From the NCBI RefSeq assembly GCF_027947535.2, contig NZ_JAAGKO020000012.1, positions 62,001 through 126,000 of the forward strand: 64,000 bases of DNA, written 5' to 3'. Position numbers and translations under genes: made by a program. The notes below the pieces were generated by a model. The model was not told the origin of the DNA, ran no database searches, and was given only the letters and a program-made list of their open reading frames with translations. This document shows positions 32,699 through 59,927 of the stretch, in pieces (positions within the stretch are counted from its first letter, which is position 1; each line of letters opens with the position of its first letter). The DNA comes from Streptantibioticus silvisoli. GTDB lineage: Bacteria > Actinomycetota > Actinomycetes > Streptomycetales > Streptomycetaceae.

Positions 32699-33928
32699 TC
32701 ACTCGAAGGTGAAGGTGAACGCGGCTTCGACCCGGCGTGCCACCTCGCTGAGCCCTTCGACGCTGTCGGCGGTGATGAGCGTCTCGGTGAAGAAGTTCTC
32801 CTGGTCCATCGAGGTCACCCGGAAGTTCTCGAACTGGTAGCCGTCCACCACCCCGGGAATGCGCTTGAGTTCGTCCAGGGGCGTGGCGCTGACCAGGACC
32901 CCCGTCCGGTCCGCCTCGAAGGGCAGGAGTGCGAGCAACTCGTCACTCCGGGTGCGGTCCGCGAGACCGGCCGCGCCGTCCATGGGCTCGTCCACTCCGA
33001 GGGCCATCAGCACCGAGGCGTGGATGGGATCGACTCCGCAGGTGCGGATGGTCGCGGCGCGGTGGAGCCCGCCGCCCGGCCGCGGGTTGATCTCGATGAG
33101 TTCGACGGACCCGTCACGGGCCGCTCGCCCCTCGACGTGGAGCCACCCGCTGGTGATCTCCGACCCGCCGCACAGCGCGGTGATCCTGCCCGCCAGCTCC
33201 TGGGCACCGCGGCGGACGTGCTCCGACGGCGGCGGCGTGATCCGCAGGCCGGCATCGTGGTGGCGGCGTTCGTCGTGCTCCGTCTTCTCCACGACGAGCA
33301 GGGCGTGGAACCGGCCGGCCGTCACCGGACCGTCCATGGAGAACTCCGTTCCCTCCACGTACTGCTCCACGATGACGTGGAGCCCGGCGCCGGCGGACTC
33401 GCCGATCTCCCGCAGGTGCGCGTCGAGTTGCGCGGCGTCGTCGGCCCGACGTACCAGCCGGGACGATCCGGAGTCCTGGGCCGGCTTGACGATGACGGGG
33501 TAGCCGGTGACGCACCGCGCGTCCAGGGACCCCACCGGCCCGGCGGCGAACCGTACGCCGGAAAGGCCGAGGCGGCGCATCTCCTCGCGCACCTTCGCCT
33601 TGCTCAACAGGATTTCCCTGCCCGCTTCCCCGCCGGGCAGCCCGTAGTGCCGCGTCACCCGGATCTGCCAACCGATCAGCGGCTCGACGAAGTTGACGAC
33701 CGCGCTCGGGACCACCCCCGCCGCGTCCACCGCCTTCACGAGCTGTTCGAGGTCGTCGGCGTCCCAGTCCACCACGATGTGGGCGGCACACGCGTCCCGA
33801 TTGACGTCCGCCGGCTCGTCCGACACCAGGACGGGACGCCTGCCGGACTCCGTGAGGATCTGCGCCACGGTACGGACTCCTCCGATGAACCGCTTGGAGA
33901 AGATCAGCACATCCGTTGACGGGGTCAT
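32699..33928 (-). CDS. ATP-grasp ligase
   Basis: 409 aa. Enzymes of this fold join a carboxylate to an amine or thiol through an acyl phosphate, as in L-amino-acid ligases. The central part shows YPVIVKPAQDSGSSRLV (ATP-binding Lys and Gly/Ser loop), VIVEQYVEGTEFSMDG and the metal-binding VELIEINPRPGGG. The N-terminal pre-ATP-grasp domain opens with DVLIFSKRFIGG and the C-terminus holds an ATP-grasp-associated small domain. An MFS exporter and a FemAB/GNAT-like enzyme follow upstream on the same strand, so it may form a dipeptide or amide in a small natural-product pathway. The ATG at 33928 is preceded by AAAGGAACGA. Confidence 0.88.
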   Translation of the reverse strand: MTPSTDVLIFSKRFIGGVRTVAQILTESGRRPVLVSDEPADVNRDACAAHIVVDWDADDLEQLVKAVDAAGVVPSAVVNFVEPLIGWQIRVTRHYGLPGGEAGREILLSKAKVREEMRRLGLSGVRFAAGPVGSLDARCVTGYPVIVKPAQDSGSSRLVRRADDAAQLDAHLREIGESAGAGLHVIVEQYVEGTEFSMDGPVTAGRFHALLVVEKTEHDERRHHDAGLRITPPPSEHVRRGAQELAGRITALCGGSEITSGWLHVEGRAARDGSVELIEINPRPGGGLHRAATIRTCGVDPIHASVLMALGVDEPMDGAAGLADRTRSDELLALLPFEADRTGVLVSATPLDELKRIPGVVDGYQFENFRVTSMDQENFFTETLITADSVEGLSEVARRVEAAFTFTFE

Positions 33929-34020
33929 CGATCGTTCCTTTGTTCAGCCTTCGGGGCCCAGCTGGCCCGGGGACGGAACCATGCCATGCGCGCGGGAGGC
34001 ACGGCGACCAGAAGCCGCGA

Positions 34021-35334
34021 TCAGGACGCTGAGGTCCGGCTCGGCTCGGGCGCCGGCTCACGGGGGCCGGCCGGACGGCCGAGCTCCTGGGCCTCCTCCA
34101 GCGTGCGTGCCGTCCGGAGCGGGGAGAACATCAGCCAGAAGGAGACGACGAGGTAGGACAGGCCGACCGCCCAGATCGCCCCGCGGGGCGAGATGAGGTC
34201 GCACAGTACGCCGCCGAGCAGGGCGCCGAGCGGCAGCGTCCCGAGCGCGATCAGCCGGTAGCTCGCGGTCACCGCTCCCAGTTGGCTCTCCTGGGGGATG
34301 GCCTGGCGCAGGCTCACCGCGAACACGTTGAACAGGGCCACCCCGAAGCCGTTCACCACGGTGGCGACGGAGGCGAGTACGACGACGTAGATCCCGATCT
34401 GCGCGACGACCGGGACGAGGAGCAGGCCGGCGGCGGCGAGGACGACCCCCAGGGTCAGCATGAAGCCCACGGTCGAACGGGCGGCCAGCCGCGATGCGAG
34501 GAGGGAGCCGGCCAGGGCACCCGCGCTTCCGATGCCGACGATCACACCCACGGTGGCGCCGCTCATGTGCAGGTCGCGGACCGCGAACACCAGGAAGACG
34601 GTGAGGAACGCCTGCTCGTGCAGGTTCGACAGGCCGGCCTGGACGCACAGGTCCCGGATCGGGCGCAGCGACCAGGTGTAGCGCAGACCGGAACGGATGG
34701 TCCGCAGCGCCGACTCGCGCGGCTGCGGGGGTGCCTCGACGCCGCGCAGGAACGCTCCGCTGATCGCGGCGCCCACGAAGAGGGCGGCGGTCACCGCGAG
34801 GGCGGACGACAGCCCCAGCCTGCCGATGAGGAAGCCGGCCGCCGAGGGCCCGGCCAGGGTGCTGATCGAATACGTGGCCTGGTGGAGGCCGTTGGCCGTG
34901 GTGATGGAGCCGACCGGCACGATCTTGGGGAGGGTCGACTGGTAGGCCACCTCGTAGAAGACGGTGGCGGTTCCGATGACGGCCGCGGCGATCACCAGTT
35001 GTGTGAAGGTCAGGCCGCCGGCGGCCTGGAAGACGCCGAGCAGGGCGAGCGCTCCGCCCCGGGCGAGGCAGCTGATGACCAGGGTGCGGCGCGGCGGGTG
35101 GCGGTCGACCATCACCCCGGCGAGCAGCGACAGGACGACGATGGGCACGAACTGGACCGCGGACAGCAGTCCGACGCCCGTTCCGTCCACCGCGAGATGG
35201 GTGACCGCGATCAGCGGCAGCAGGAAGTTCGTCAGCTGGGCGCCGAAGTGCGCCGCCGTCTCCCCGATCCAGACGTTGCGAAAGTTCGCATTGCCCTTCA
35301 GCAGATCACGGACTTCTCCGTCGAATGCTTCCAC
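34021..35334 (-). CDS. MFS transporter (enterobactin-exporter-like MFS_3 group)
   Basis: 437 aa with 12 predicted membrane helices. The VMVDRHPPRRTLV loop between helices 2 and 3 is the MFS motif A, and the N-terminal RNVWIGETAAHFGAQLTNFLLPLIAV matches exporters of the MFS_3 group. I chose GTG 35334, which has a GGGGGGCGG stretch just upstream. It lies between the ATP-grasp ligase and the GNAT/FemAB-like gene and probably exports their product, which would also give self-protection. Confidence 0.9.
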   Translation of the reverse strand: MEAFDGEVRDLLKGNANFRNVWIGETAAHFGAQLTNFLLPLIAVTHLAVDGTGVGLLSAVQFVPIVVLSLLAGVMVDRHPPRRTLVISCLARGGALALLGVFQAAGGLTFTQLVIAAAVIGTATVFYEVAYQSTLPKIVPVGSITTANGLHQATYSISTLAGPSAAGFLIGRLGLSSALAVTAALFVGAAISGAFLRGVEAPPQPRESALRTIRSGLRYTWSLRPIRDLCVQAGLSNLHEQAFLTVFLVFAVRDLHMSGATVGVIVGIGSAGALAGSLLASRLAARSTVGFMLTLGVVLAAAGLLLVPVVAQIGIYVVVLASVATVVNGFGVALFNVFAVSLRQAIPQESQLGAVTASYRLIALGTLPLGALLGGVLCDLISPRGAIWAVGLSYLVVSFWLMFSPLRTARTLEEAQELGRPAGPREPAPEPSRTSAS

Positions 35335-35857
35335 TGCCGCCCCCCGGCCGGTATCTCGTGAATAGAATGCGTAGGACCCTAGCACGTCATGACATACGCC
35401 GCCAACGCGTTTCCGTGACCGCTCGGCGGCCTTTACGGAACGGTCAGCGGTGGCAGAGCGATAACGGCTCCGGAACGATGGACGTTTTCAAAGCGATAAA
35501 CGATGGACGTCTTCGATGCGATAGAGGCGGCGGGCGATCCGTCCTGCGGAACCCATCGCCGGGGAGGTCGGTATTTTTCCCCAGTGGGCCGGTGAACTGC
35601 GGGAACGGCCCGCGCGTCCCGGCCGGCCGGACCCGGGCCCGCGATGTCTCCGGCGCACCGGCGATGGCCTTCGCCGGATATTCACCCCGCGGCATGTCGA
35701 TACGCTGTTCCGGCCGACCGGATTGTCGGACGGCAAGCTGACGGCGTTCATTCCCTCCCGCGCCGCACCGGTGTTTCGGGCACCCATGGGGCGGTGAACG
35801 GAAATCCGCTGCCGGACCGCTGCGCACCGGAAGTCCGCCCGGTGCTGTACGCGCCCC
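35335..35857. other. Intergenic stretch with a 25-nt tandem duplication
   Basis: 523 bp between the GNAT/FemAB-like gene end and the MFS gene start. It has a 25-nt direct duplication (35474-35498 and 35499-35523, unit beginning AACGATGGACGT), which lies where an MFS promoter or operator would be. No gene is supported. Confidence 0.5.
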
Positions 35858-37018
35858 CTACAGTGGTCCGATCGACGCCAGATCCCACTCCTCGGGGTCC
35901 GTGCCGCCGCCGGCCTCGGTCATCAGCGCGTCGGCCAGCTTCCGGTCCGCCGCCACGTCGCGCCGCAGCCCGGCGTTCGCGGTGAGCGGGAGCGGTACGA
36001 CGGCGGCCCAGAGCGGGCACACCGACGCCCCGCGGCGCACCTTCGCCTCCAGGGCGGAGAGCCCCAGGTGCAAGGAGGTCATCCCCGCGCCCTCCATGTG
36101 CCGCAACGGGGCGTAGTACACGGCGTTGAAGTACTCGAAGGCGTTACGGGTCCGCGTGTAGTCGAAGCCGGCCACCCGCGCGTAGAACGTGTCGCGCCAG
36201 GCGAAGCAGAGGTTGCCGCCGACCAGCCGCCCCTCTTCGTCGACGCAGCGGAACACCGTGCTCAGGCCGTCCAGGCAACGCGCCTGCACGCTGAGGAAGG
36301 CGTGGATCTCCGCGGGGTCGAGGGAGGCGCTGTAGCGGTCCATGGTCTGACCCACCAGCGGCGCGAACTCGTCGACGCACTCGGAGAGCGGCGCCGTCTC
36401 CATCCGCAGCCCGGAGTTCTCGAACCGGCGTATCTCGTAGTCGCGCTTGACGGCGTTGCGGCCGAGCATCCCCCGGTACGACGCGAAGGTGCCGCCGTCG
36501 TTGCGCAACACGGCCTCGGCGGCGCGCAGTTGGGCCTGCACCGGATACAGCCCCGCCAGCCGGCGGAGGCTGTCGGTGGTGAGGCAGTCGAAGAGCAGCG
36601 CGTCGCACCCCAGGTCCGCGGCCTTCTCCGCGACCCCGGCGACCAGGTCGCCGAGCAACTCCCGGGCCTTCTCCGGGTCTTCCGACACGCGTCCGGGGTT
36701 TTCCGACTCGCGTCCGGGGTTTTCCGACACGAGGAACTCGTTGTGGTTTCCGGTGCGGGTGCCCACTCTGAGCACCCGGTACCCCTGGGCGACGTCGGGC
36801 AGCGGCGGGGCGGTCCGCGCCGGGAAGTCGTAGTAGGGGGTCGCGGCGGCGAGAGCGCCGTCGTTCATGACCGTGACGTAGCCGGCGGTGGCGAAGTCGG
36901 GCCGTTCCTGTCCCCGCAGCCAGGCGTGGCTCTGGTAGAAGCGGCTGCCCGGCACCAGTCCGTCCCAGGCGTTCTGGCCGATGTCGTCGATCGACTCCAG
37001 GTGTTTCACATCTGACAT
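35858..37018 (-). CDS. FemAB/GNAT-fold acyltransferase-like protein
   Basis: 386 aa. It resembles the peptidoglycan-biosynthesis/FemAB-like group within the GNAT superfamily: WDGLVPGSRFYQSHAWLRG at the start, a second GNAT half with GGNLCFAWRDTFYARVAG, and GMTSLHLGLSALEAKVRRG near the end. Such enzymes move acyl or aminoacyl groups, sometimes from tRNA. A short in-frame repeat (SENPGRE/SENPGRV/SEDPEK, DNA about 36680-36735) inserts in a surface loop. ATG 37018 was chosen for its GGAACGGA ribosome binding site. Context with an ATP-grasp ligase and exporter suggests aminoacyl transfer in a peptide pathway (inference). Confidence 0.78.
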   Translation of the reverse strand: MSDVKHLESIDDIGQNAWDGLVPGSRFYQSHAWLRGQERPDFATAGYVTVMNDGALAAATPYYDFPARTAPPLPDVAQGYRVLRVGTRTGNHNEFLVSENPGRESENPGRVSEDPEKARELLGDLVAGVAEKAADLGCDALLFDCLTTDSLRRLAGLYPVQAQLRAAEAVLRNDGGTFASYRGMLGRNAVKRDYEIRRFENSGLRMETAPLSECVDEFAPLVGQTMDRYSASLDPAEIHAFLSVQARCLDGLSTVFRCVDEEGRLVGGNLCFAWRDTFYARVAGFDYTRTRNAFEYFNAVYYAPLRHMEGAGMTSLHLGLSALEAKVRRGASVCPLWAAVVPLPLTANAGLRRDVAADRKLADALMTEAGGGTDPEEWDLASIGPL

Positions 37019-37784
37019 GGTCCGTTCCGTTCCTCGCTCGTTCCACTCCTGCAACGGTGCGCCGTCCCCGACGACGAACGCCGGTGGCGCCGGGCCGCGT
37101 TGTGATCCCGTGGGAAGTCCGGCACCGCACGCCGGGGGCGACAGCCACGCGCAACGGGTCATCGCGAGCCGCACACAGTAGCCGTTCCGGGCAGGCCGTC
37201 GAGCCTGCTGCGCGTCAACGGCACGTCACGCGCGGATTCCGGTGCACGCGCGGGCACTTGTGCGACGTGTTCGCCCCGGTAGCCGTGCGCACGAGTGCCC
37301 CGGCGGTCGTGCGCACGAGGATGCGGCCCCCACGCATCCAGCGGATCGTTCCACCCTAGCGGCGTCCGACACGGTACCCCGCGGCGTCGCCGGTCCGCCT
37401 CCGGGAATCCGGCGGCCGGGACGCGGTGGCGGGGCGTCGCGGGACACGGGACGCGTCGGCGGGGCGTTGTGCGCCGCGCAGGTGAGGGGGCGCGGCCGGG
37501 CAGCGGAAGCGCCGCTGGGTGCCGGGGCGGCGGACCCGGTCGATGCTGTTCGGGGTAGACGTGGGTGAGGGCTTTGGCGTAGGTGTTATCGACTCAGAAC
37601 GGTTGCTTCTGGACGCCGTTGGACGGAGGGACGTCCTCCGGGGGAGGGGGCGGACGGGGTGACGTTCTGTTGGCGTCGCTCCGGCTGGGGGCGCTGTTGT
37701 TGCCGGTGATCGGGGTCGGGCCCATGCGGACCCGTCGTCCGCGGCGGTCCCGCCGCAGCCGTGCGACGGACCCGCGCCAGCGAT
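37019..37784. other. Intergenic stretch, no gene seen
   Basis: 766 bp between two minus-strand operons. It contains GC-rich simple repeats (CGTGCGCACGAG twice near 37285-37320; GACACGG.ACGCG.CGGCGGGGCG near 37420-37470), and open frames lack ribosome binding sites. It should contain the promoter of the GNAT/FemAB-like gene and the terminator of the five-gene operon. Nothing more specific is seen. Confidence 0.5.
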
Positions 37785-38810
37785 TCAGCGGTACCGGCCG
37801 CCGTCCGGCTCGTCGTCGGTCAGCAGGGCGTAGGCGGCGGCCACGAAGCCGTCGCCGCGCCGGAAGCGCCGGGTGGCGACGGCGACGACCGCGGTGCCGG
37901 TGCCCGGCCGGAAGCCCAGGAACGCCTGCTGGCCACTGGTCGCTCCGGCGTGGAAGTAGGCCGGACCGCTCCCGGTGGGATGGACGAACCAGCCCAGGCT
38001 GTGGGTGTGCCGGTGCCCGTGCCCGCGGCGCAGCACCGGACGGCGCATCAGGGTCAGCGCCTGCCGCGTCAGGGCGTCCGGCACCCGTTCCGGTTCCAGG
38101 TGGGCCTCCAGGAACGTCAGCAGGTCGTGCGGCGTGGCGCGGATCGCGCCGGCCGCCAGGAAGCCCCCGACGTCCAGTGGGGGAGTCGGGGTGACCCCGT
38201 CCTTGCGGTGGCCGGCCGCGTCGGCACCGGGCGTCGCCAGCGTCGAGGTGTGCGCCAGCCCCAGCGGTCCCAGCAGCCGGCGCGTCATCAGCTCCTGCCA
38301 GGGCGCCCCGGCCGCCGCTGACAGCGCGTGGCCGAGCACCGAGACCCCGAAGTTGGAGTACCGCCAGTGACCGCCCGGCCGGTGCCGGGGCCGGGCCCGC
38401 AGGAAGGCGGCCACCACGCGGTCCGGGCCGTAGCGCTGGAAGGGGTTGCTGGACCACCGCGGCACCGCCCGCGGGTAGAGGTCGGCGGGCAGCGCGGGCA
38501 GGCCGGAGGTGTGCGTCATCAGATGGACCAGCCGCACCGGGCCGCCGCCGGCCGGCCGGCCCGGCGCCAGGTGGGCCAGTGCCGGATCGCGCCCGTGGAC
38601 CACCCCGGCCGCCGACAGCGAGGTCAGCAGCAAGGCGGTGAAGGACTTCGAGGCCGACCCCGCCTCGTACCGCAGTTCGTCGCGCGGCACGCACGGCGCC
38701 GGACCCGACCCGCCGCAGCGCACCGAGCGCCGGCCGTCGCGGGACAGCGCGAAGACCACGTCCGGCGCGTCGACCGCGGCGACCGCCTCAGCCAGCCGGT
38801 CGCCGGTCAC
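37785..38810 (-). CDS. Beta-lactamase/PBP-fold serine hydrolase (class C type)
   Basis: 341 aa. SASK with Ser52 and Lys55 is the SxxK motif, Tyr151 in WRYSNFG is the YxN motif, and HAGATSG near residue 293 stands in the HxG position, so it is a penicillin-binding-protein/beta-lactamase-fold hydrolase. Family members act as D-aminopeptidases, esterases or peptide-bond-forming cyclases (as in SurE-type peptide cyclases). No signal peptide is present, so it is cytoplasmic, which argues against a cell-wall role. GTG 38810 overlaps the upstream stop by 4 bp. As last gene of the five-gene operon it may cleave or cyclise the encoded 61-aa peptide. Confidence 0.88.
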   Translation of the reverse strand: MTGDRLAEAVAAVDAPDVVFALSRDGRRSVRCGGSGPAPCVPRDELRYEAGSASKSFTALLLTSLSAAGVVHGRDPALAHLAPGRPAGGGPVRLVHLMTHTSGLPALPADLYPRAVPRWSSNPFQRYGPDRVVAAFLRARPRHRPGGHWRYSNFGVSVLGHALSAAAGAPWQELMTRRLLGPLGLAHTSTLATPGADAAGHRKDGVTPTPPLDVGGFLAAGAIRATPHDLLTFLEAHLEPERVPDALTRQALTLMRRPVLRRGHGHRHTHSLGWFVHPTGSGPAYFHAGATSGQQAFLGFRPGTGTAVVAVATRRFRRGDGFVAAAYALLTDDEPDGGRYR

Positions 38811-39742
38811 GCGCGTTCCGGGGCCAGACCGGACATCGCCCGCGAAGTGGCCAGCGCCGAGGCGAACGCGGCGACCAGCGTCGGATGGTAGAGCAGGTCG
38901 AACGCCTCGTTGCCTCCGTCGCTCCCGCCGGCCGCTTCGCCGTCGGCGCCGGAGACCGGCATGGAGCCGTCCGGCGACTGGGCACCGGCGAGCGCGGTCC
39001 AGGCCGCCTCGTCCAGTGACGGGTACGGCAGGCAGGCGTCGACCACGAGCAGTTCGCCCAGCAGGTCCCAGCGGCGCAGGTCGGTCCAGTCGTCCAGCCA
39101 CACCGGCAGCCACAGCGCCAGGTAGTCCGCGACCTCGTCCGGTAGCCCCCGCGGGCTTTCGCCCCAGTCGGTGAGGTGGAAGACGGTGTGCGTGATGTCG
39201 TAGCCGATGTGGCCCTCGACGGTCCACGGTTCGGGGGTACGGGCCAGCCAGGTGCGGGCTGCGGCCTCCGGCAGCGGGGTGGACGGCGTCATGCCGTAGC
39301 GGCGCTCGAAGGTGCACACGCCCAGCCGGCGCACCGGCGACACCTCCAGCGCCGCCCAGCTGCCCAGACGGTGGTTGATCCGAATGGCCCGCTCCAACTC
39401 CGGTTCGCCGTAGCCCAGTTCCCGGAACGGCACGTACGTCTCGAACGGCACCGGCGACAGCGGTTCGCGGCGCTGGCCGACCACCAGGGCCCGCCCGCCG
39501 TCCAGCACCTCGCGCCAGGCGTGGTCCAGCAACTGCCGGGCCAGCTCGGCCTGCCGGGAGCCGGCCACCCCCTCGCGGAACAACACCTTGCAGATCAGGG
39601 CGAGTTCACCGACCGGCTTGAAGCGTTCCAGGAACGAGCCGCCCGCCTCGGCCGCCGGCTCCAGCCGGAAGCCGTCGCGGTGCGCGTGCAGCCAGGTCAG
39701 CGCCTTCAGCCCCACGTCGTGGGTGAGTCGAACGTCCCTCAT
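38807..39742 (-). CDS. Helical protein with HTVFHLTDWG motif (copy 2), DUF6895-like
   Basis: 311 aa, predicted all-helical and soluble, with no membrane segment. HTVFHLTDWG at about 185-194, RFKPVGELAL near the start, RRLGVCTFERR in the middle and YHPTLVAAFASALATSR near the end are shared with the next gene upstream, its paralogue. The layout recalls helical-toroid proteins of the DUF6895 type, whose function is not known to me. The ATG at 39742 overlaps the upstream stop (ATGA). It is placed between its paralogue and the serine hydrolase in the peptide operon. Confidence 0.75.
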   Translation of the reverse strand: MRDVRLTHDVGLKALTWLHAHRDGFRLEPAAEAGGSFLERFKPVGELALICKVLFREGVAGSRQAELARQLLDHAWREVLDGGRALVVGQRREPLSPVPFETYVPFRELGYGEPELERAIRINHRLGSWAALEVSPVRRLGVCTFERRYGMTPSTPLPEAAARTWLARTPEPWTVEGHIGYDITHTVFHLTDWGESPRGLPDEVADYLALWLPVWLDDWTDLRRWDLLGELLVVDACLPYPSLDEAAWTALAGAQSPDGSMPVSGADGEAAGGSDGGNEAFDLLYHPTLVAAFASALATSRAMSGLAPERA

Positions 39743-40719
39743 ACCGGTTCTCCGATCGTGTCGCCGCCCGCCGGCACCGGCCGCGAGCCGCCGCCGGCCG
39801 CAGGCGGTGCGCACTCCGCGAGCCGGAAGGTGGCCAGGGTGGCGGCGAACGCGGCGACCAGGGTGGAGTGGTAGCAGTTCCAGAACGTGCGGCCGTCCGC
39901 CATGGCCGGGGCGGTCGCACCGGCCTCCGGCACGGCGCCGTCCGGGCGCTGCACCGCCGCGATCCGCTCCCACGCCGCCCGCGAGGCGTCCCGCGGCCCC
40001 GGACCGGGCACGCTGGCGGCCACCGCCAGCAGTTCGCAGGCCAGATCCCACTGCTCCTGCTCCAGACAGCCGTCCAGCCAGGCGGGCAGCCACACCGTCA
40101 GGTACCGCGCCAGGTCCGGCGGCACCCGCTGCGGCGCCCGGCCCCAGTCGGTCAGGTGGAAGACGGTGTGGGTCAGCGCGTAACCCGAGGCGTGTTCGAA
40201 CGTCCACGGCTCCGGCAGTCCGCCGAGCCAGGTGCGGCGCAGCACGACCGGTGCGGCGTCGTGCGGCACGAACCCGGTGCGCGCCTCGCAGTTGAGCACC
40301 CCCAGCCGCCGGTTGGGGGGCTGTTCCAGCAGCCGCCAGCCGCGGGTGCGGGTCATCGTCGCGCAGAAGTCCTGTACCCGCGGATGGCACAGGCCGACCG
40401 CGGCGAACGCGGCGTAGATCTCCAGCGGGTAGGTGGCGAACGGCTCGCAGCGCAGCAGGTCGGCGAAGAGCGCGCCGCGCGCGGTCTGCTCCCATGCCCA
40501 GTCCACCGACTCCCGGGCCAGCCGGTGCCGTTCGTCGTCCGGCGCGGTGTGCCGCAGGATCGAACCGCTCAACTGGGCCAGCTCGCCGAGGGGTTTGAGC
40601 GTGCGGTTGACGTCGGTGTCCGGCGCGAGGATGTCGGGCGGCAACGCGAAGTCGTCCCGTCTGGCCGCCGTCCAGCGCAGTGCCGCCGTGGCCACTTCCC
40701 GCTCCGGGCCGCCCGTCAT
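39739..40719 (-). CDS. Helical protein with HTVFHLTDWG motif (copy 1), DUF6895-like
   Basis: 326 aa, paralogue of the gene that follows. It shares TLKPLGELAQL, RRLGVLNCEAR, HTVFHLTDWG (about 183-192), DLACELLAVA and YHSTLVAAFAATLAT with it. It differs by the leading DILAPDTDVNRT and a Gly/Pro-rich tail. The invariant His-x3-His and Asp-Trp could form a metal or active site, giving two related enzymes or a heterodimer that acts on the operon's peptide (inference). ATG 40719 overlaps the upstream stop by 4 bp. Confidence 0.75.
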   Translation of the reverse strand: MTGGPEREVATAALRWTAARRDDFALPPDILAPDTDVNRTLKPLGELAQLSGSILRHTAPDDERHRLARESVDWAWEQTARGALFADLLRCEPFATYPLEIYAAFAAVGLCHPRVQDFCATMTRTRGWRLLEQPPNRRLGVLNCEARTGFVPHDAAPVVLRRTWLGGLPEPWTFEHASGYALTHTVFHLTDWGRAPQRVPPDLARYLTVWLPAWLDGCLEQEQWDLACELLAVAASVPGPGPRDASRAAWERIAAVQRPDGAVPEAGATAPAMADGRTFWNCYHSTLVAAFAATLATFRLAECAPPAAGGGSRPVPAGGDTIGEPV

Positions 40720-41411
40720 CGCGGGTCTCCGGCCCGCAGCAGCTGCGCGGCCGACACGTGCAGCGCGACCCGCGGGTCGGCGCCGTCCATGTGCTGGATG
40801 AACTCCAGACCGGTGTCGAGTCCCAGGGACGGCGGCACGTCGTCGAGGACCGCGAGCCAGCGGCCCGCGCCGGCCGCCTGGAGCCAGTCGCGCCGGCGAA
40901 CGGCCCGCACGAAGCCGCGCGCCACATCGTGCGGACGGCGGGTCAGCGCCCGCAGCACCCCGCAGTCGCCCCCCGGTACGGCCAGCGCCGCGAGCAGCGA
41001 GACCTGGTGGGTCAGCGCCTGCCAGGGCGCGGTGTCCAGCCACGAGGCGTCCGGCTCGTCGTCGGCGGGGTGCGGCACCGGTGGGTCCAGGGCGCGCAGG
41101 CTGCGGGCCATCGCCCAGTGGCTCCACGCGGTGGCCCGCGAGGCGTCCGCGCCCGGCGGGAAGGCGGTCAGCGCCTGGCGGAGGATCCGCACGTCCAGTC
41201 CCTCCGGCCGGCGCCGGCTCATGATGCTCGGCAGCAGCACGTCGGCGCCCAGTACGCGCACCGCCGCGATGCCCAGCTTGTCGTCCTCCACGATGCCCGC
41301 GGGCGCGCAGACCACGCCGGGGTGGTCCCCGCCCCGCAGGGCGGAGACCACCTCCGATGCCAGGTCGCGCACCGCGCCCGCGAGGCGGGTGGATGCGGAT
41401 GGCTGCTCCAT
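40716..41411 (-). CDS. Unknown protein following the 61-aa peptide gene
   Basis: 231 aa, mostly helical with Trp/Asp/Pro-rich loops (DPPVPHPADDEPDASWLD) and LAVLDDVPPSLGLDTGLEFIQHMDGADPRVALHV near the end. No family is recognised. It lacks the HTVFHLTDWG motif of its two neighbours. The ATG at 41411 lies 11 bp after the peptide stop, and the stop overlaps the next ATG. It could be a peptide-binding or additional modifying protein. Confidence 0.7.
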   Translation of the reverse strand: MEQPSASTRLAGAVRDLASEVVSALRGGDHPGVVCAPAGIVEDDKLGIAAVRVLGADVLLPSIMSRRRPEGLDVRILRQALTAFPPGADASRATAWSHWAMARSLRALDPPVPHPADDEPDASWLDTAPWQALTHQVSLLAALAVPGGDCGVLRALTRRPHDVARGFVRAVRRRDWLQAAGAGRWLAVLDDVPPSLGLDTGLEFIQHMDGADPRVALHVSAAQLLRAGDPR

Positions 41412-41422
41412 GCAGTCCGACC

Positions 41423-41608
41423 TCAGCTCTTCTTCGGGCGCGGGGTGGGGGGCGAGAGCAGGAGGGTGGCGGTTCCGCTCAGCAGGGCGAGTGCGGCGCA
41501 CTCACGCGTGTCGTGGAACGTTCCCTCCATCTCGGCCGGATTCAGCGCGTTCTCGACATCGATGTCGAGAACCATCGTCGGGTTCATGGTCGTGTGCTCA
41601 GTAGTCAT
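41423..41608 (-). CDS. 61-aa peptide, possible RiPP-type precursor
   Basis: The first gene of a five-gene overlapping operon. The N-terminal half is acidic (LDIDVENALNPAEMEGTFHD), like a leader for an enzyme to hold; then come Cys37 in TRECAALALL, a hydrophobic Ser/Thr-containing stretch (SGTATLLL) and the tail SPPTPRPKKS. The ATG at 41608 has AGGGAA about 7 nt upstream. A leader-like 13-codon frame with GGAGGAG (start GTG about 41637) ends over this ATG and could couple translation. The size, acidic front and operon position fit a ribosomally made peptide precursor. The core class is unknown because no known lanthipeptide, lasso or radical-SAM enzyme is beside it. Confidence 0.68.
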   Translation of the reverse strand: MTTEHTTMNPTMVLDIDVENALNPAEMEGTFHDTRECAALALLSGTATLLLSPPTPRPKKS

Positions 41609-43191
41609 GTGATCGTTCCCTAGGAATGAGGGGATTCACTTGCTCCTCCAGTGGAACTCGCCCGGCCGGGGCCCGCAAACGCATGGCCCGTTCGCAGGGA
41701 AAAATCGCTCCGACTTGCGGAAATCGCCATCGGGGTATCGGAATCCCGGCCGCCGCCCGTCGCACCGGAAAATCCGGCCCCGCACCGGAAGAGTCGCCCC
41801 CGCACCGGAAAATCCGGCCCCGCACCGGAAAATCCGGCCCCGCACCGGAAGAGTCGCCCCCGCACCGGAGAATCCGCCTCCGCTCCCGAAAGCCGCCGCT
41901 GCTCCCGGAAAGCCGTCGCCGGACAGGTCGGATGCCGTCAGGGCACGGGCGAACCCGGTGAGCACGTCGGTCCCCAGCGCCGCCGAATCTTTTCCGGTCC
42001 GGCCGCGGGACACACGTCACGCGGTTCCCGTACCGGCTGGCAGGCTCAACCCCGGCCCGATTTCCTCGCCTTCACCGGTCCGGCTGGATCAGCGGCAACG
42101 ACGACGGACTTCAGAAATCCTGATACGCGATCAACCGGCATATCCACCAGGGTTCCACGGGGGGCGCGGATTCCGCGGCCGCGTAACCAGGAGATGCCTC
42201 GGGAACTTCTGTGACATCAATGAGGTGAGGTGAGGTGCGGTGCGGGTGGGTGATGAGGCGGTCGGCGGATTCGGGGGAAGGCCTCAAGAGCGCCCGCTGG
42301 TCGGATGAGGCTTCGTCGGCGTCGGGATCCCGGTTCGCGGGACCGGTCCCCGTCGCCGGCCGCCACGGCCGGCGGTGGCCAGGGTGCCCCGGAGCATCGC
42401 CGCGCGCCCTGAGGTGGGGCCGCCGTCGGGGGAGGGGAACGCGGCGCGTGCGGCAGGGCGACCCTCCGCCCGACGAGCACCCCCGCCGCGCCGGGGCGTG
42501 CGGTGCCGGTGCCCGCCGTGCGCGTCACTCCGCGCGCCCTGTCGTCGGCCTGCCCGCGCCCCCTCGTCGTACGGGACGCTCGGGGCGACGGGGTAGCCGA
42601 CACCCGGCCGGATGCCCCGCACCCATCAGGAACAGGTCCCAGGCCGTTCCGAGAAGGACGTCATGAGTCACCACGTCCCCCGTCGGCGGGAACATCCCCG
42701 ACAACTGCGCCGGCAGCTCCCCGTCCGTGCCCGGATGTGTCGGCTGACGGTCCGTGCCCCCGGGGCCGTGACCCGGGTGACCCCGACGGAGACGCACGTC
42801 GCAGGCAAAACGGCGGCTCCGCGGACACCCGGCCCCCGGAGCCGACCCGGCGTCAGCCGGCCGTCGGCGCCCCAGGAAGCGCGTGGTCCGCGGCTACCGG
42901 GCTCCGGCATCGCGACGGCGCTGACCGACAGCGGGACGGCATACGGACGGAGCGGCTCAGGGGCCCCGCCACCACGGCGCAACCCGTCAGGCGGGGCCAC
43001 CGGGTGAACGGAGCGCTCCTGCCGGCCCGGTGAGCGCGGCGGCCTCGGCCCGGAAAAGGAGGGTGCGCGGCGACACCGGACACACCATCAGGCTGAATCA
43101 CGGGGCACAGCCGTCGGCGCAGGGCAAAACGGCGCCGCGGTGGATAGCCTCCCCTTCGAGGTCATTTCCGGCATATCACAAGGAGTGGGTC
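41609..43191. other. 1.6-kb gap with repeats and no firm gene
   Basis: The left part holds the 20-nt repeat array at 41761-41920. A minus-strand 125-codon frame (41636-42013, GTG start) reads through the array and gives two 20-aa repeats (GAGFSGAGATLPVRGRIFRC) plus a CVC motif; its composition is only partly coding-like. A plus frame at 42663-43007 has AAGGAC before its ATG but low-complexity Arg/Pro content. Neither is annotated as a gene. The promoter of the peptide operon must lie near 41640-41760. Confidence 0.45.
41761..41920. repeat. 20-nt tandem repeat array upstream of the peptide operon
   Basis: Six full units run from 41761 to 41880 in the order A B A A B A', where A is CGCACCGGAAAATCCGGCCC and B is CGCACCGGAAGAGTCGCCCC. 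Two degenerate units (CGCTCCCGAAAGCCGCC type) follow to about 41920. It lies about 150 bp upstream of the 61-aa peptide start. Confidence 0.95.
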
Positions 43192-45171: not shown

Positions 45172-51855
<6,684 letters not shown>

Positions 51856-52125
51856 GTTCTGCTCCTGCGTCGTCAACGCGGGCTCCTCATGTCGGATTCG
51901 TCGATTGACCTGGGCCTGTCCGGCGGGTCAGGGCGGGACGGGAAGCGGCGCCCGCTGCCGCGCGAAGCGGTGCCCGCCGGCCGCGGGGCGGGGGAACCGG
52001 GCGCCGGAGCGGCCCGGCAGCCGGTGGCGTCGGGGCGTTCCGGCAGCGCCGTCCCGCGCCCCCGGCCGCCGGCCGCGGGCGCCCGCGGGCCGGGCGTCGC
52101 GGGGCCGCCGTCCGCCGGACACGCC

Positions 52126-53169
52126 TCAGGCCCAGGCCGGCAGTTCGGTGATGGTGAGGACCACGGCCACGGCCGACCAGCCCGGAGCCCCGCCGAAGAG
52201 CAGGACGTGGTCGCCCGCCGCGAGTTGGCCGGTGCGCAGCAGGTGGTCGAGCGCGATGAACTGGTCGCTGGCCGAGGCGTGCCCGATCCCGCAGCCGAAC
52301 TCCCACTGCGACCGGGAGACGTCCAGGCCCAGCGGCTCCATGACGCAGTTGCGGGTGGTCGCCTCGTCGCCGTTGGGCACCAGGACCCAGCGCAGGTCGG
52401 ACACCTCGATCCCGGCCTCGCCCACGGCGGCGCGCGCCGTCTCGGTGCAGGCGATCGCGATGCCGTCGCCGACGCTCACCCCGTCGATCTCCTTGACCCG
52501 CTCGTTGAACTGCTGGGCGCGGCCCACGACGTCGATCCGCCGGCCGGAGGACCCGGTGGGCGGGAACAGCGGCTCGTCGCCGCGCGCCATCGCCTCGAAC
52601 TCCGGGTAGACCCTGGAGACGACCGCGTCGACGCGGGCGAACCCGCCGGTCGCGCTGAGCACCACGGAGCTGGCCGCGTCGGCGGCGATCACGCCCATCG
52701 GCCCGCTGTCCCACCGGTTGATCAACGGCGAGTTGAAGTTGTCGGCGGTGGTCAGCAGGATGTCCGGCCGGTCGTCCGACTGGTGCGACAGCAGGCCGGC
52801 CCCCAGCTCGACGGCGGTGAGCATGCCGTTGCACCCGTTGCGTATCTCGGTGCCGCCGGCCCCCCGGATGCCCAGCTCCCGCATGATGTACGCCGACGGC
52901 GACCACATCTCGGGGCCCTGGTAGAAGGTCGAGGCGTGCAGCACCGTCCCGATCGAGGCGGCGCCGCCGGGGGACCGGTCGAGCGCCACCCGGGCGGCCT
53001 CGACGGCCATGTCGGGCGCCGGTTCCGTGCCGGCGACCAGGACACCGCGCAGCGCGCTCTCGGCGAAGACCGCGGGGTCGTACAGGCCCGCGGCGACGGC
53101 CTCGGACGCGGCGAAGGCGGACGGCAGCCGGCAACCCAGACCGGCGAGGAACACGTTCGCCGGCTTCAT
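52126..53169 (-). CDS. KASIII-like acyltransferase/ketosynthase, copy 1
   Basis: 347 aa with the thiolase fold of FabH. Nucleophile Cys113 sits in RNGCNGMLTAVE. The usual FabH HQAN region reads VPNGDEATTRN and the Asn loop reads GHASASDQ, so the normal Cys-His-Asn triad is changed. Such divergent KASIII proteins (CerJ, CloN2 and relatives) transfer acyl groups between carriers, or onto sugars, instead of doing decarboxylative condensation. Here it probably moves the pyrrolyl group from the stand-alone carrier protein to the PKS or to an acceptor. It lies 270 bp upstream of the PKS gene. ATG 53169 was chosen; the upstream extension is repeat DNA. Confidence 0.88.
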   Translation of the reverse strand: MKPANVFLAGLGCRLPSAFAASEAVAAGLYDPAVFAESALRGVLVAGTEPAPDMAVEAARVALDRSPGGAASIGTVLHASTFYQGPEMWSPSAYIMRELGIRGAGGTEIRNGCNGMLTAVELGAGLLSHQSDDRPDILLTTADNFNSPLINRWDSGPMGVIAADAASSVVLSATGGFARVDAVVSRVYPEFEAMARGDEPLFPPTGSSGRRIDVVGRAQQFNERVKEIDGVSVGDGIAIACTETARAAVGEAGIEVSDLRWVLVPNGDEATTRNCVMEPLGLDVSRSQWEFGCGIGHASASDQFIALDHLLRTGQLAAGDHVLLFGGAPGWSAVAVVLTITELPAWA

Positions 53170-53511
53170 GCTCGCGCCCGGACGGGACTCATGATTGTCA
53201 TGCCTTGTTCGACGCATGACGGCCGGTGTCTGTTCACGCCGGCCCGCGACTTTCTCCGGACCCCGCGGGAAGGCCACGGCCGGCGAACGGGTCCGAATCG
53301 GCTCCGCGGGAACCGGCTGACGACGGCACGCCGGTGCGGCCGACCGACCGCGCCGGGCCGTGCGGTGCGCCGGGCCGTGCGATCCGTGTGCCGGGCCGGT
53401 CCGATGAGCACACCGGCCCCGCCGTTCAGTGCGCGGGACCGGTCCGATGAGTACACCGGCCGCACCGTCCAATGCACCGCTTCGATCCGATGAGCGCACC
53501 GGCCGCACCGT
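53170..53511. other. Gap between sigma factor and KASIII-like gene
   Basis: 342 bp. The right half is the 43-nt tandem repeat; the left half (53190-53390) is the likely promoter region of the KASIII-like and PKS genes and includes a lower-GC patch around 53195-53230. No gene is seen. Confidence 0.5.
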
Positions 53512-53526
53512 TCAGTGCACCGGGCC
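53398..53526. repeat. 43-nt tandem repeat, three units
   Basis: Units 53398-53440, 53441-53483 and 53484-53526 share G(G/A)TCCGATGAG, CACCGGCC and GTTCAGTGC blocks. The last unit runs into the end of the sigma factor gene, so the sigma stop codon and last four codons lie within the repeat. Confidence 0.92.
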
Positions 53527-54234
53527 CAGGAGTTCGGCCAGCGACCTCAGCGCGTAGAAGCGCCGCGACCGCACCGTGCCTTCCGGCACCCCCAGCCGGG
53601 TGGCCAGCTCGCGGGGCGTGACGTCGCGGTAGTACAACTCGACGAGCACCTCGCGCTGCACCTCCTTCAGCCGCGCCAGGGCGGACCGGACGGTGTGCAC
53701 GTCCACCACCCGCTGCGCGTGATCCGGCGTGTCGATGTGCACCGGCGCCTCGACCACGGCACGCCGCTCGGCGCGTATCTTCCGTTTGCGGGTCGCGTCG
53801 ATGAACGCGTGCCGGGCGACCGTGAACAGCCAGGGCTGGCACAGCTCCGGGCCGGCCGGCAGCGCGTCGACGTTGCGCCACGCCCGCAGCAGCGTCTCCT
53901 GGAGCAGGTCCTCGGCGAATTCGCGTTCCCCCGCCGTCAGCCGCAGCAGGAACCGGCGCAACGCCCCGGCGTGGGTATCGTGGACGTCCCACATCCGGCG
54001 CAGGTCGTCGGACACGGCCCCCGGCGTGCGGGCCGCACCGGGACGCGCGAGTACCGGTTCGCCGTCGGGCCGGACGCCGCAGTACCCGCCGCGGACGTCC
54101 TGCCCGGCCTGCGCGCGGTCGTCGGCGGTGCCGTCGGCGGCGGCGAGGGAACCGGTGCCGGAGGCGGCACCGGGCTCGGCGAGTGGGGTGGAGAACGCGA
54201 CGGGGACGCGTTCGGCACGTCGGGTGGGGGACAT
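53512..54234 (-). CDS. ECF-type RNA polymerase sigma factor
   Basis: 240 aa. Region 2 (FAEDLLQETLLRAWRN, PWLFTVARHAFID) and region 4 (LKEVQREVLVELYYRDVTPRELATRLGVPEGTVRSR) are complete. About 70 extra residues precede region 2 and include a Cys and a Pro/Ala-rich stretch. No anti-sigma gene is adjacent. The ATG at 54234 has AAGGACC upstream. As the last gene in line after halogenase and HAD genes, it probably activates the polyketide cluster, including the PKS and KASIII genes downstream. Confidence 0.92.
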   Translation of the reverse strand: MSPTRRAERVPVAFSTPLAEPGAASGTGSLAAADGTADDRAQAGQDVRGGYCGVRPDGEPVLARPGAARTPGAVSDDLRRMWDVHDTHAGALRRFLLRLTAGEREFAEDLLQETLLRAWRNVDALPAGPELCQPWLFTVARHAFIDATRKRKIRAERRAVVEAPVHIDTPDHAQRVVDVHTVRSALARLKEVQREVLVELYYRDVTPRELATRLGVPEGTVRSRRFYALRSLAELLGPVH

Positions 54235-54279
54235 TCGCGGTCCTTGGTTCGGTCGGCGTCGTCGGGCGAGCCCGGTCCG

Positions 54280-54948
54280 TCACACGGTCGGGACGGCCGC
54301 TCCCCGATTGCGGGAGCGTGTGGTGCCCGCGTCAACCAGGCGGGCGAGCCGTTCAACGGTCAGTTCGGACAGGCCGGGTACGCACAGGGCCACCGGTTCC
54401 CGTGTCGGCGCGACCGAGACCGGCACGCACCCCGCGGCGATGCCTGACCGGATTCCGGTGGACGAGTCCTCGACGACCACGCAGCGCCCGGGGGCGACCC
54501 CGAGCCTGGCCGCGGCGGTGCGGTAGGACTCGGGGTCGGGTTTCGGGCGGTCCACCTCGTCGCCCGCCACGGTCACGGCGAACTCCGCCCGGCCGAGCGA
54601 GGGCAGCACGGCGTCCACCATCGCCCGGTACGAGGACGTGACCAGCGCGCACGGCACCCCGGCCCGCCGCAGCGCCCGCAGCAGGCCGACGGCTCCGGGC
54701 AGCGGGGTGATCCCGTCACGCAACCGGGCGAGTACCCGGTCGTTGACGTGTGCGTACAGCTCCTGCGTGCTCATCGGCGACCGCAGCAGGCCGCTCAGCC
54801 GGGTCAGGTTCTCCGCGACACTGCGCCCCCGCAGTTCCTCCGGCCGAACCGCCGAGGCCGGCACGCCCCGGTCGACGAGCACCGCCAGCAGGGCGCCGAG
54901 CAGGATCGGTTCGGTGTCGACCAGGGTGCCGTCCAGGTCGAACAGCAC
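54280..54948 (-). CDS. HAD-superfamily hydrolase (phosphoglycolate/beta-phosphoglucomutase type)
   Basis: 222 aa. FDLDGTLVDTEP holds the nucleophile and acid/base Asp residues (Asp4, Asp6), VTSSYR is motif II, the Lys of DRPKPDPE is motif III and VVVEDSSTGIRSG is motif IV; the cap domain lies at residues 18-85. It would remove or move a phosphate on a small metabolite. GTG 54948 lies 14 bp after the halogenase stop. Its role in the chloropyrrole cluster is not evident; it may act on a phosphorylated intermediate or be housekeeping. Confidence 0.88.
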   Translation of the reverse strand: MLFDLDGTLVDTEPILLGALLAVLVDRGVPASAVRPEELRGRSVAENLTRLSGLLRSPMSTQELYAHVNDRVLARLRDGITPLPGAVGLLRALRRAGVPCALVTSSYRAMVDAVLPSLGRAEFAVTVAGDEVDRPKPDPESYRTAAARLGVAPGRCVVVEDSSTGIRSGIAAGCVPVSVAPTREPVALCVPGLSELTVERLARLVDAGTTRSRNRGAAVPTV

Positions 54949-54962
54949 CGCCCACGGCGCGG

Positions 54963-56312
54963 TCAGAAGAGGGCCTTGGACGCGAGGGAGACCTTCATCT
55001 TTCCCAGCAGCGGGTGCCAGAGGTGGTCGGGATTCTCCTCGACGGTGGTGACGAACTCCCGCATCGCCGTCAGGGCGGCCGGCTCCTGGTCGTCGTAGAC
55101 GTCCCCCTGAAGCAGTTTCAGTACGTCGATACGGTAACGGGGGTCCTGGACGAAGGCGGTGAACAGGATGTTGAGGCGGTAGTAGATGGAGATGAACTCG
55201 TACCAGGTGGACACCCCGCGCCGCAGCTTCGTCACGTAGGTCTCGAACCGGTCGGCGCTGAAGTCGTCGGCCGCCGCGGCGGCGATGATGTCGGCGCAGG
55301 CCAGCCGGGCGCTGTTCATCGCGACACTGACACCGCTGGAGAAGATCGGGTCGACGAACCGGGCGGCGTCGCCGATCATGACCATCGCGTCACCGCTGAC
55401 CTTGCGCATGCCGTAGCTGTAGTCGCCCTCGGCCTTGAAGGGGCGTACCCGCTCGGCCTTCTTCAGCGCGTCGTGCAGCAGCGGCCTGCTGCCGACCGAC
55501 TCCCAGAAGAAGCCTTCGAGATCGTCCTTGCTCTCCTTGAACCGCGCCTTCTGGGTGACGACCCCGATCGAGGTGATCGTGTCGGTGATCGGGATCTGCC
55601 ACACCCAGGTGTCGCTGAGCGGCAGGAAGTGGATGAATATGTACCCGGCCTGGTTCTCGTCGTTGGCCAGTGCCTGCCGGTCGAGCCCTTCGAACCAGCT
55701 GTGCACGGCGTACTGGTTGAACACCGGGTCGGGGACCTTGACCTTGAGCTGCCGCCCCAGGAGCGTGCCGCGCCCGCTGGCGTCGACGACCATCCGCACC
55801 GTGACGTCCGCGGTCGGCCCGCCGAGTCCGACCCGCAGCACGGGACGGCGGGGATCGGCGAAGTCCACGTCCCGCACCCGCACCCCGCAGAACACCTTCG
55901 CCCCGAGGCTTTCCGCGTGCTTGAGCAGGATCAGGTCGAACTCGCCGCGGTCGACGTGGAAGGTGTAGTCGCGGTCGACGCCGAGCTGGTCGCGTTCGTT
56001 GAACAGCACGTCGGCCGCGCCGAGGCCGTGGTCGTGGACCTGGAAGCCGAGCGGGTCCACCCCGTCCGCGTTGGCCGACGTCCACGCGGCGCCGTACTTG
56101 CGGGGGAAGCCGGCCGCTTCGATCTTGTCCATGACGCCGATGTCGAGCAGGACCGGCGTGGTGGCCGGCACCAGCGACTCACCCACGTGTTCCCGGGGGA
56201 ACAGCTCACTTTCGAACACCGCGACCGAGAGGCCGGCCTTGGCCAGGTAGGACGCGGCGGTGGAGCCGGCCGGACCGCCGCCGATGATGCCGATGTCGTA
56301 GTCGTACGTCAT
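54963..56312 (-). CDS. FADH2-dependent halogenase (carrier-bound substrate type)
   Basis: 449 aa. GGGPAGSTAA near residue 11 binds FAD, and WVWQIPI at about 236 is the WxWxI signature of flavin-dependent halogenases; GDAARFVDPIFSSGV is the second FAD motif. Tunnel Lys was not located with certainty. The closest known groups are those chlorinating pyrrolyl-carrier thioesters (PltA, HrmQ, Clz5) and CndH-type enzymes. It sits directly downstream of the carrier protein gene (11 bp), which supports chlorination of pyrrole-2-carboxyl on that carrier. FADH2 would come from a reductase encoded elsewhere. Confidence 0.9.
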   Translation of the reverse strand: MTYDYDIGIIGGGPAGSTAASYLAKAGLSVAVFESELFPREHVGESLVPATTPVLLDIGVMDKIEAAGFPRKYGAAWTSANADGVDPLGFQVHDHGLGAADVLFNERDQLGVDRDYTFHVDRGEFDLILLKHAESLGAKVFCGVRVRDVDFADPRRPVLRVGLGGPTADVTVRMVVDASGRGTLLGRQLKVKVPDPVFNQYAVHSWFEGLDRQALANDENQAGYIFIHFLPLSDTWVWQIPITDTITSIGVVTQKARFKESKDDLEGFFWESVGSRPLLHDALKKAERVRPFKAEGDYSYGMRKVSGDAMVMIGDAARFVDPIFSSGVSVAMNSARLACADIIAAAAADDFSADRFETYVTKLRRGVSTWYEFISIYYRLNILFTAFVQDPRYRIDVLKLLQGDVYDDQEPAALTAMREFVTTVEENPDHLWHPLLGKMKVSLASKALF

Positions 56313-56323
56313 CTGTCGCCCCG

Positions 56324-56602: not shown

Positions 56603-56641
56603 GGTTTCTCCTTGCATCGGTGAGGGGGCTGCGGCAGGGCA

Positions 56642-59918: not shown

Positions 59919-59927
59919 GAGATTCCT

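What the first reader, a model, noticed from the sequence alone, without database searches (positions are those of the whole stretch)
37785..41608. Undescribed peptide operon: 61-aa acidic precursor, two paralogous helical proteins and a PBP-fold hydrolase
Five genes overlap by 4 bp or lie within 11 bp. The first encodes a precursor-like peptide, the next three encode proteins without a known enzyme motif, two of which are paralogues sharing HTVFHLTDWG, and the last a cytosolic serine hydrolase that could cleave or cyclise a peptide. No LanM, LanB, YcaO, lasso or radical-SAM enzyme is present, so if this is a RiPP system it is of a new type.
Basis: partly seen in the sequence, partly recalled or inferred. 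Interest (0 to 1): 0.78.

Follow-up and report, generated by a model that had tools for sequence, protein, structure and literature searches.

The report
Streptomyces peptide operon with paired epimerases
About half of the sampled relatives of this soil bacterium carry genes of the same family, often in the same or a similar compact gene set, which seems to make a small peptide, probably flip some of its amino acids to the mirror-image form, and then cut or close it; the set fits no known class of such peptides.

Summary
Five minus-strand genes (41608-37785) are packed with one 11-bp gap and three 4-bp overlaps: a 61-aa peptide, a 231-aa all-helical protein ("P2") without a known family, two tandem DUF6895 (PF21836) proteins and a cytosolic S12/PF00144 serine hydrolase. 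The operon is conserved: of 80 named Streptomyces/Streptantibioticus loci, 77 have all five genes; the other three are cut by contig ends. Over 141 P2-bearing loci (132 distinct), a peptide gene precedes P2 in 140. Loci with two DUF6895 genes carry a peptide ending like ...SPPTPRPKKG; loci with one carry other peptides, mostly ending ...SPKxP.

DUF6895 also sits in planosporicin-like lanthipeptide clusters, radical-SAM peptide clusters and LanB/cupin clusters. A 2026 paper, seen only as a title in a reference list, calls a DUF6895 enzyme a lasso-peptide epimerase. Its predicted fold is an (alpha/alpha)6 toroid. No lasso-protease match was found in this genome.

Best reading: a RiPP operon without any class-defining enzyme, in which two DUF6895 epimerases (inferred) act on the Leu-rich segment and a D-selective S12-type hydrolase (inferred) cleaves or closes the product. 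No product has been seen, so the chemistry is unproven.

The parts
41423..41608 (-). precursor-like peptide, 61 aa: acidic N-terminal half, motif FHDTREC, Leu/Ala/Gly-rich segment AALALLSGTATLLL, tail SPPTPRPKKS
   Evidence: found by phmmer in 35 of 61 loci, the window included, and in 79 of 80 named loci
40716..41411 (-). P2: 231-aa all-alpha protein without Pfam, NCBIfam or clear PDB match; probable partner or precursor-binding protein (inferred)
   Evidence: matched in 16 of 20 DUF6895-positive and 0 of 20 DUF6895-negative genomes
39739..40719 (-). DUF6895-A (PF21836), first tandem copy, 326 aa; putative peptide epimerase
38807..39742 (-). DUF6895-B (PF21836), second tandem copy, 311 aa; putative peptide epimerase; (alpha/alpha)6 toroid model
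37785..38810 (-). S12/PF00144 serine hydrolase, 341 aa, no N-terminal hydrophobic segment by eye; S52, K55, Y151, H287
41609..41640 (-). sequence before the peptide ATG with a ribosome-binding-like AGGGA
   Evidence: sequence printed; not tested further

Best explanation
The operon makes a ribosomally synthesised, post-translationally modified peptide (RiPP) of a class not defined by any known class-defining enzyme. Shown: a conserved small precursor-like gene precedes P2, one or two DUF6895 genes and an S12-type serine hydrolase; the number of DUF6895 genes goes with the type of peptide. Inferred: the N-terminal acidic half is a leader; P2 holds the precursor or the enzymes; the DUF6895 proteins, (alpha/alpha)6 toroids with a conserved set of acidic and histidine residues (E46, H185, D192, D226, E230, H286 in copy B), abstract and return an alpha-proton in the Leu/Ala/Gly-rich segment and so make D-residues, two copies serving the type-I peptide; the S12-type hydrolase, from a fold family with several members specific for D-residues (recalled), then cuts next to a D-residue, most simply removing the conserved PPTPRPKK tail, or passes the acyl group to the peptide's own amine to close a ring. 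My probability for RiPP is about 0.85, for epimerisation here about 0.55, for the D-selective hydrolase step about 0.4.
For: Conserved five-gene unit amid mostly unlike neighbours. Peptide before P2 in 140 of 141 loci; the same motifs fired in 5 of 141 reverse-strand and 1 of 141 downstream controls (completed by reading). Two DUF6895 genes with PPxPR peptides in 114 loci by the regex (116 after reading L053 and L101); one with SPKxP peptides in 18 (19 with L192, whose DUF6895 is split); one with other Leu-rich, Gly-rich or divergent peptides in 5. P2 matched in 0 of 20 genomes without and 16 of 20 with DUF6895. DUF6895 in other RiPP settings: LanB + LanC + ABC transporter (one cluster by Pfam; six more by gene order and size), peptide + radical SAM + MFS, LanB + Cupin_8 in an actinomycete and in Cupriavidus. 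Published title naming a DUF6895 lasso-peptide epimerase. In all 8 radical SAM clusters the first DUF6895 has lost E46, E230 and H286 together (Q, K, Q) while the second keeps them, which marks these three as one working site; both window copies keep them. Fold shared with sugar 2-epimerases among others. Catalytic S, K, Y, H of the hydrolase in 139 of 139 aligned rows; best PDB sequence match an S12 peptidase, 3wwx.
Against: No product, mass or expression data. The epimerase paper was seen only as a title. The (alpha/alpha)6 fold is also that of terpene cyclases and glycosidases, which score as high or higher, so fold does not name the reaction. The peptide is strongly conserved, which is unusual for an antibiotic RiPP, and no transporter or separate leader protease belongs to the conserved unit. 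S12 enzymes are diverse (esterases, beta-lactamases, peptidases), and 3wwx matches at only 60.6 bits. K42 and W225, constant or nearly so in this operon, are lost in the lanthipeptide clade, so the reaction may differ between clades.
Confidence: 0.6

Rival explanations
1. RiPP operon, but DUF6895 does another reaction here, for example a cyclisation or dehydration in the style of other (alpha/alpha)6 toroids such as terpene cyclases or uronate dehydratases; the S12 hydrolase is a plain peptidase or esterase.
For: Best structural neighbours include squalene-hopene cyclase (Z 16.0) and GH105; the sugar epimerases come after them (Z 15.0-14.6). Foldseek's top row is a glucuronate dehydratase (E 2.5e-3). 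K42 and W225 are lost in the lanthipeptide clade, so clades may differ in reaction.
Against: The only functional report found for the family calls it an epimerase (title); T184, H185, D192 and D226 are kept in nearly every sampled row.
Confidence: 0.2
2. Not a RiPP: the small hydrophobic peptide is itself a functional membrane microprotein (signal, toxin or scaffold) and the other genes control, bind or degrade it.
For: Hydrophobic segment followed by a basic tail looks like a small membrane peptide; strong conservation of the tail (51 of 76 distinct peptides end in LLSPPTPRPKKG); no exporter in the conserved unit.
Against: DUF6895 recurs beside RiPP precursors and enzymes in unrelated clusters; tail charge is not conserved in single-DUF loci (EPEEEE in L064).
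Confidence: 0.12
3. The peptide is a lasso peptide finished by cyclase and protease genes elsewhere in the genome, with DUF6895 as its epimerase, as in the published lasso case.
For: Title of the published DUF6895 work concerns a lasso peptide.
Against: No match to Transglut_core3 (PF13471, the lasso B2 protease family) anywhere in this genome; none of five Asn_synthase matches lies on contig C24. The other loci were not tested for these families.
Confidence: 0.03

Closest known systems
DUF6895 lasso-peptide epimerase (Shi et al., ACS Catal. 2026, 16, 1757; title only, seen as ref 371 of PMC13352647)
   Same: Same named family as two of the five genes.
   Different: No lasso protease match in this genome and no Asn_synthase match on this contig; tandem copies, P2, S12 hydrolase and another peptide.
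MslH (MS-271 lasso peptide epimerase)
   Same: Radical-SAM-independent peptide epimerisation by acid/base chemistry (abstract and passages of PMC10406935).
   Different: MslH has a calcineurin-like fold with Ca(II); DUF6895 is predicted all-alpha.
Planosporicin/NAI-107-like class I lanthipeptide clusters (core likeness recalled, not from a call)
   Same: Seven of the sampled loci hold a DUF6895 gene directly after two transporter-sized genes (Pfam test of one, L068).
   Different: They have LanB and LanC and a Cys-rich precursor; none of the operon's five proteins matches those families.
S12/PF00144 peptidases: 3wwx S12 family peptidase, ClbP, D-alanine carboxypeptidases (D-specificity recalled, not from a call)
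   Same: PF00144 domain and catalytic residues; 3wwx is the best PDB hit, 1.1e-15; ClbP 3.2e-11.
   Different: Distant in sequence; the window's enzyme shows no N-terminal signal by eye and sits in a peptide operon.
Sugar 2-epimerases (cellobiose 2-epimerase 5zig, N-acyl-D-glucosamine 2-epimerase 1fp3)
   Same: (alpha/alpha)6 toroid, Z 15.0 (4.1 A, 273 aligned) and 14.6 (4.2 A, 276 aligned).
   Different: About 10% identity; sugar, not peptide, substrates; other toroid enzymes score equally.

Membership tests
DUF6895 (PF21836) | score above the Pfam cut-off over the full domain | tested here: met
   296.7 and 290.9 bits against 23.8, positions 2-289 and 3-289 of 289
RiPP biosynthetic operon | short precursor gene conserved next to the enzymes | tested here: met
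   140 of 141 P2 loci; 79 of 80 named loci
RiPP biosynthetic operon | modifying enzymes from a family known to modify ribosomal peptides | tested here: inconclusive
   family membership met, but the function rests on a title and on genomic company
RiPP biosynthetic operon | modified, processed peptide product | not testable with these tools
   needs mass spectrometry
Lasso peptide cluster | B2 leader peptidase (PF13471) | tested here: not met
   0 matches at E <= 0.001 in the assembly, 98.11% complete
Lasso peptide cluster | Asn_synthase-type cyclase (PF00733) near the precursor | tested here: not met
   5 matches, none on contig C24
Lanthipeptide cluster | LanB/LanC or LanM/LanKC enzyme in the operon | tested here: not met
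   none among the five proteins; of the rest of the window only ten further genes were scanned
Radical-SAM epimerised RiPP (proteusin, epipeptide) | radical SAM enzyme (PF04055) in the operon | tested here: not met
   none among the five proteins
RRE-dependent RiPP | PqqD-like winged-helix recognition element | tested here: inconclusive
   no Pfam match to PqqD in any of the five proteins; P2 is predicted all-helical, but RREs can escape sequence models
S12 serine hydrolase (PF00144) | SxxK, YxN and H/KxG catalytic motifs | tested here: met
   S52, K55, Y151, N153, H287, G289; S, K, Y, H, G in 139 of 139 rows and N in 136
D-stereospecific S12 peptidase | preference for a D-residue at the scissile bond | not testable with these tools
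   needs an enzyme assay

The most novel reading that the evidence does not exclude
A ribosomal route to a D,L-peptide made without radical SAM enzymes, in which two cofactor-free epimerases act on several residues of a Leu/Ala/Gly-rich core and a penicillin-binding-protein-like enzyme uses the new D-residue as acyl donor to cut off the tail and close the peptide on its own N-terminus, giving a membrane-active ring or channel peptide shared by a large part of the genus.
Probability: 0.12. Interest if true: 0.9.

Novelty: new variant of a known kind. Interest (0 to 1): 0.64.

Why it matters
DUF6895 occurs in 217 of 394 sampled genomes of the window's family; of the 163 loci with a DUF6895 match that I read, 141 have P2 and so this operon or its single-copy form, though these loci were not drawn at random. 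None of the operon's five proteins matches a class-defining RiPP enzyme, so searches for cyclases, dehydratases, YcaO or radical SAM would be expected to pass it by. If the reading holds, a common Streptomyces peptide has gone unnoticed, and the pairing of an epimerase with an S12-type hydrolase would be a way to make and then recognise D-residues in ribosomal peptides. The active-site residues named here make the epimerase claim directly testable.

Tried and rejected
Lasso peptide: rejected for this genome. P2 as a broken or distant DUF6895: profile comparison gave probability 0.2% and P2's model found no clear PDB match. A hydrophobicity-window rule for finding the peptide was a poor test: it missed 56 of 141 loci, the window's own included, and fired on the reverse strand in 44 of 141; I replaced it with tail motifs plus reading by eye. 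A regular-expression check of the hydrolase motifs was misleading and was replaced by an alignment. bldA regulation: no TTA codons in the five genes. Literature: searches for DUF6895, MslH/lasso epimerases, RiPP + epimerase + DUF, RiPP + S12 family, decRiPPter + hydrolase, RiPP + D-leucine, and D-stereospecific S12 amidohydrolase showed no description of this operon in their listings; only open-licence PMC papers are held and I opened two of them, so this is weak evidence that it is unpublished. VIA-align was run for DUF6895 only; no structural family is excluded by its absence there.

Counts to read with care: of the 141 P2 loci, nine pairs are the same DNA fetched twice (132 distinct). The 80 named loci are the best-scoring 80 of 335 confirmed stretches, and all are of the two-copy type. 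The 60 loci were hand-picked from the matches listed, and the 20, to widen variety, so proportions of types are not population frequencies. The tree used samples of the two-copy type (15 each of 117); there copy 1 forms a clade with only 0.51 support, copy 2 with 1.0, the single-copy type (with one row from outside P2 loci) with 0.61, and the three together with 0.94. In one search my gene calls missed the DUF6895 of L071, which the profile did find. The genome scans score a limited number of first-look candidates, so absences are soft.
Full report
Observation. The five genes lie on the minus strand between 41608 and 37785: a 61-aa peptide, then after 11 bp P2 (231 aa), then DUF6895-A, DUF6895-B and the hydrolase, each overlapping the last by 4 bp. 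The two paralogues are both Pfam DUF6895 (PF21836; 296.7 and 290.9 bits), the last gene is PF00144, and the peptide and P2 match no Pfam or NCBIfam model. A search of the window's genome with DUF6895-B gave two matches, both in this operon.

Conservation. A family scan found DUF6895 in 217 of 394 genomes of the window's family and in none of 14 control genomes, commonly in one or two copies. In a phylum-wide draw it was in 7 of 396 genomes: six of the same family, the window's own included, and one marginal hit elsewhere. In the named set 77 of 80 have all five genes, two lack the hydrolase and one lacks the peptide. The one without peptide, L108, is a 4.7-kb contig that begins inside P2. The two without hydrolase are L101 and L144, whose stored sequence ends 36 and 184 bases after the second DUF6895 match (lengths). 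Outside the operon the neighbours mostly differ from locus to locus, with some shared among several loci.

Two operon types. Among 141 places with P2 (132 distinct after removing duplicates), loci with two DUF6895 genes have a peptide with the tail [SA]PP[TAP]PR, and loci with one have another peptide. The regex gave 114 and 18. The exceptions, read by hand, are: L053 and L101 have the first kind, the regex having missed one and first hit another frame in the other; L192 counts as two only because its one DUF6895 is split over two frames; L044, L045 and L050 have a third kind with a tail EDA[FY]xG; L047 has a Gly-rich and L178 a divergent peptide; L108 is cut. The same motifs fired in 5 of 141 reverse-strand and 1 of 141 downstream control stretches. 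Enzyme number and peptide type thus change together, which is what one expects if DUF6895 acts on the peptide; shared descent of the two types would also give it.

The peptide. The type-I consensus over 76 distinct sequences (capitals where 90% or more agree) is e-a-a-L-d-p-x-E-x-d-G-x-y-R-D-s-R-E-C-a-a-l-a-L-x-x-g-x-x-x-l-L-l-s-P-P-T-P-R-P-K-k-g; the window's copy, not in that count, has H for the first R. Single-copy loci have, for example...SDAPLYSPEAAGFLLLLLLLSPKTP... (L049). Leader and core borders are inferred; nothing here shows where the peptide is cut. The Cys is not general: L048 has Met, and most of the single-copy peptides printed have none.

DUF6895 elsewhere. Of 164 loci, 23 have no P2. 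(a) Seven (L068, L183, L186, L187, L188, L190, L191) hold LanB- and LanC-sized genes and two transporter-sized genes before DUF6895, and in L068, L187, L188, L190 and L191 I read a precursor such as ...ITSISYCTPGCTSEGGGSGCSHCC; Pfam confirmed Gallidermin, Lant_dehydr, LANC and ABC2 for L068 alone. (b) Eight hold a radical SAM gene and two DUF6895 genes, with a gene weakly like glycosyltransferases (below the Pfam cut-off) and MFS; a short acidic peptide (...ICIINNSSAM in L065) and a subtilase were seen in several. Pfam was run on L058 alone. (c) Cupriavidus oxalaticus plasmid DNA (L193) and the actinomycete locus L189 have LanB, Cupin_8 and small genes beside DUF6895. (d) L059, L061 and L173 have a 65-72-aa gene before a DUF6895 frame. 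(e) L066, L069 and L071 showed no clear precursor. [quoted passage not shown] I saw only that title; the paper is not held.

Structure. The AlphaFold model of DUF6895-B is confident (pLDDT 92.5, pTM 0.91) and all-helical. Foldseek gave no match at E <= 0.001. VIA-align puts the model with (alpha/alpha)6 toroids: squalene-hopene cyclase Z 16.0, 3.6 A over 258; GH105; cellobiose 2-epimerase Z 15.0, 4.1 A over 273; N-acyl-D-glucosamine 2-epimerase Z 14.6, 4.2 A over 276. The tool warns that mostly helical models can reach Z near 13-14 by common arrangement alone. The fold allows an epimerase but does not name one. T184, H185, D192, D226 and G259 are nearly constant through the seven groups tabulated; E46, E230 and H286 are constant in those groups except the radical SAM clusters. 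There, in 8 of 8 clusters, the first copy has Q, K and Q at these three positions and the second keeps E, E and H, as if the three form one site and the first copy had become a partner without it. In the window both copies keep all three. P2 is also confidently helical (pLDDT 89.6) with no clear PDB relative and no profile match to DUF6895. P2 was matched in 16 of 20 DUF6895-positive genomes and in 0 of 20 negative ones; of the four misses, G005, G014 and G049 do have a weak P2 homologue at the locus (L057, L064, L062), and G022 (L061) is of type (d).

Hydrolase. S52, K55, Y151 and H287 are kept in 139 of 139 aligned rows. The best PDB match is an S12 peptidase, 3wwx (60.6 bits); class C beta-lactamases, ClbP and chains named D-alanine carboxypeptidase are also among the hits. 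That several S12 enzymes act on D-residues is recalled knowledge; that this one does is inference.

Mechanism. Taking these together I think the peptide is a RiPP precursor, P2 its partner, the DUF6895 pair its epimerases and the hydrolase the enzyme that reads the D-residue. What is shown is gene order, co-occurrence, predicted fold and conservation of likely active-site residues; the reactions are inferred. Lasso, lanthipeptide and radical SAM classes are excluded for the operon by their own defining genes, within the limits stated in the membership table.

Noticed in passing
window 45172-61000, minus strand: A separate biosynthetic cluster: one-module type I PKS (KS-AT-DH-ER-like-KR-ACP), two KAS III-like genes, a sigma factor, a tryptophan-halogenase-like FAD enzyme, an acyl-CoA dehydrogenase and a 97-aa gene that looks acyl-carrier-like by eye but had no Pfam match at 1e-8.
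   Followed up: partly
window 32699-37174, minus strand: ATP-grasp (PF13535), MFS transporter and a 386-aa protein without a Pfam match at 1e-8 follow the operon on the same strand; the gene after the hydrolase differs between loci, so they are probably not part of it.
   Followed up: partly
window 41753-41891: Tandem array of a 20-bp unit (6.6 copies, CGCACCGGAAAATCCGCCCC) about 145-285 bp upstream of the peptide start; could be regulatory or a plain minisatellite.
   Followed up: no
L058, L063, L065, L067, L070, L179, L184, L185: Unfamiliar peptide cluster type: radical SAM with two DUF6895 genes, the first of which lacks three putative active-site residues in all eight, with a glycosyltransferase-like gene, MFS and, in several, a SARP-like regulator and subtilase.
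   Followed up: partly
L193 (Cupriavidus oxalaticus plasmid) and L189: LanB + Cupin_8 (JmjC-like) + DUF6895 cluster shared between a betaproteobacterium and an actinomycete, with an LWTC motif in candidate precursors.
   Followed up: partly
L173 7896-8114, L061 7162-7359, L059 9320-9526: A 65-72-aa gene (AGYVLAWE[RK]YVLVVA) precedes a DUF6895 frame, without P2 or hydrolase; the DUF6895 frame is unusually long in L059 and L061 (577-599 aa by my gene calls).
   Followed up: no
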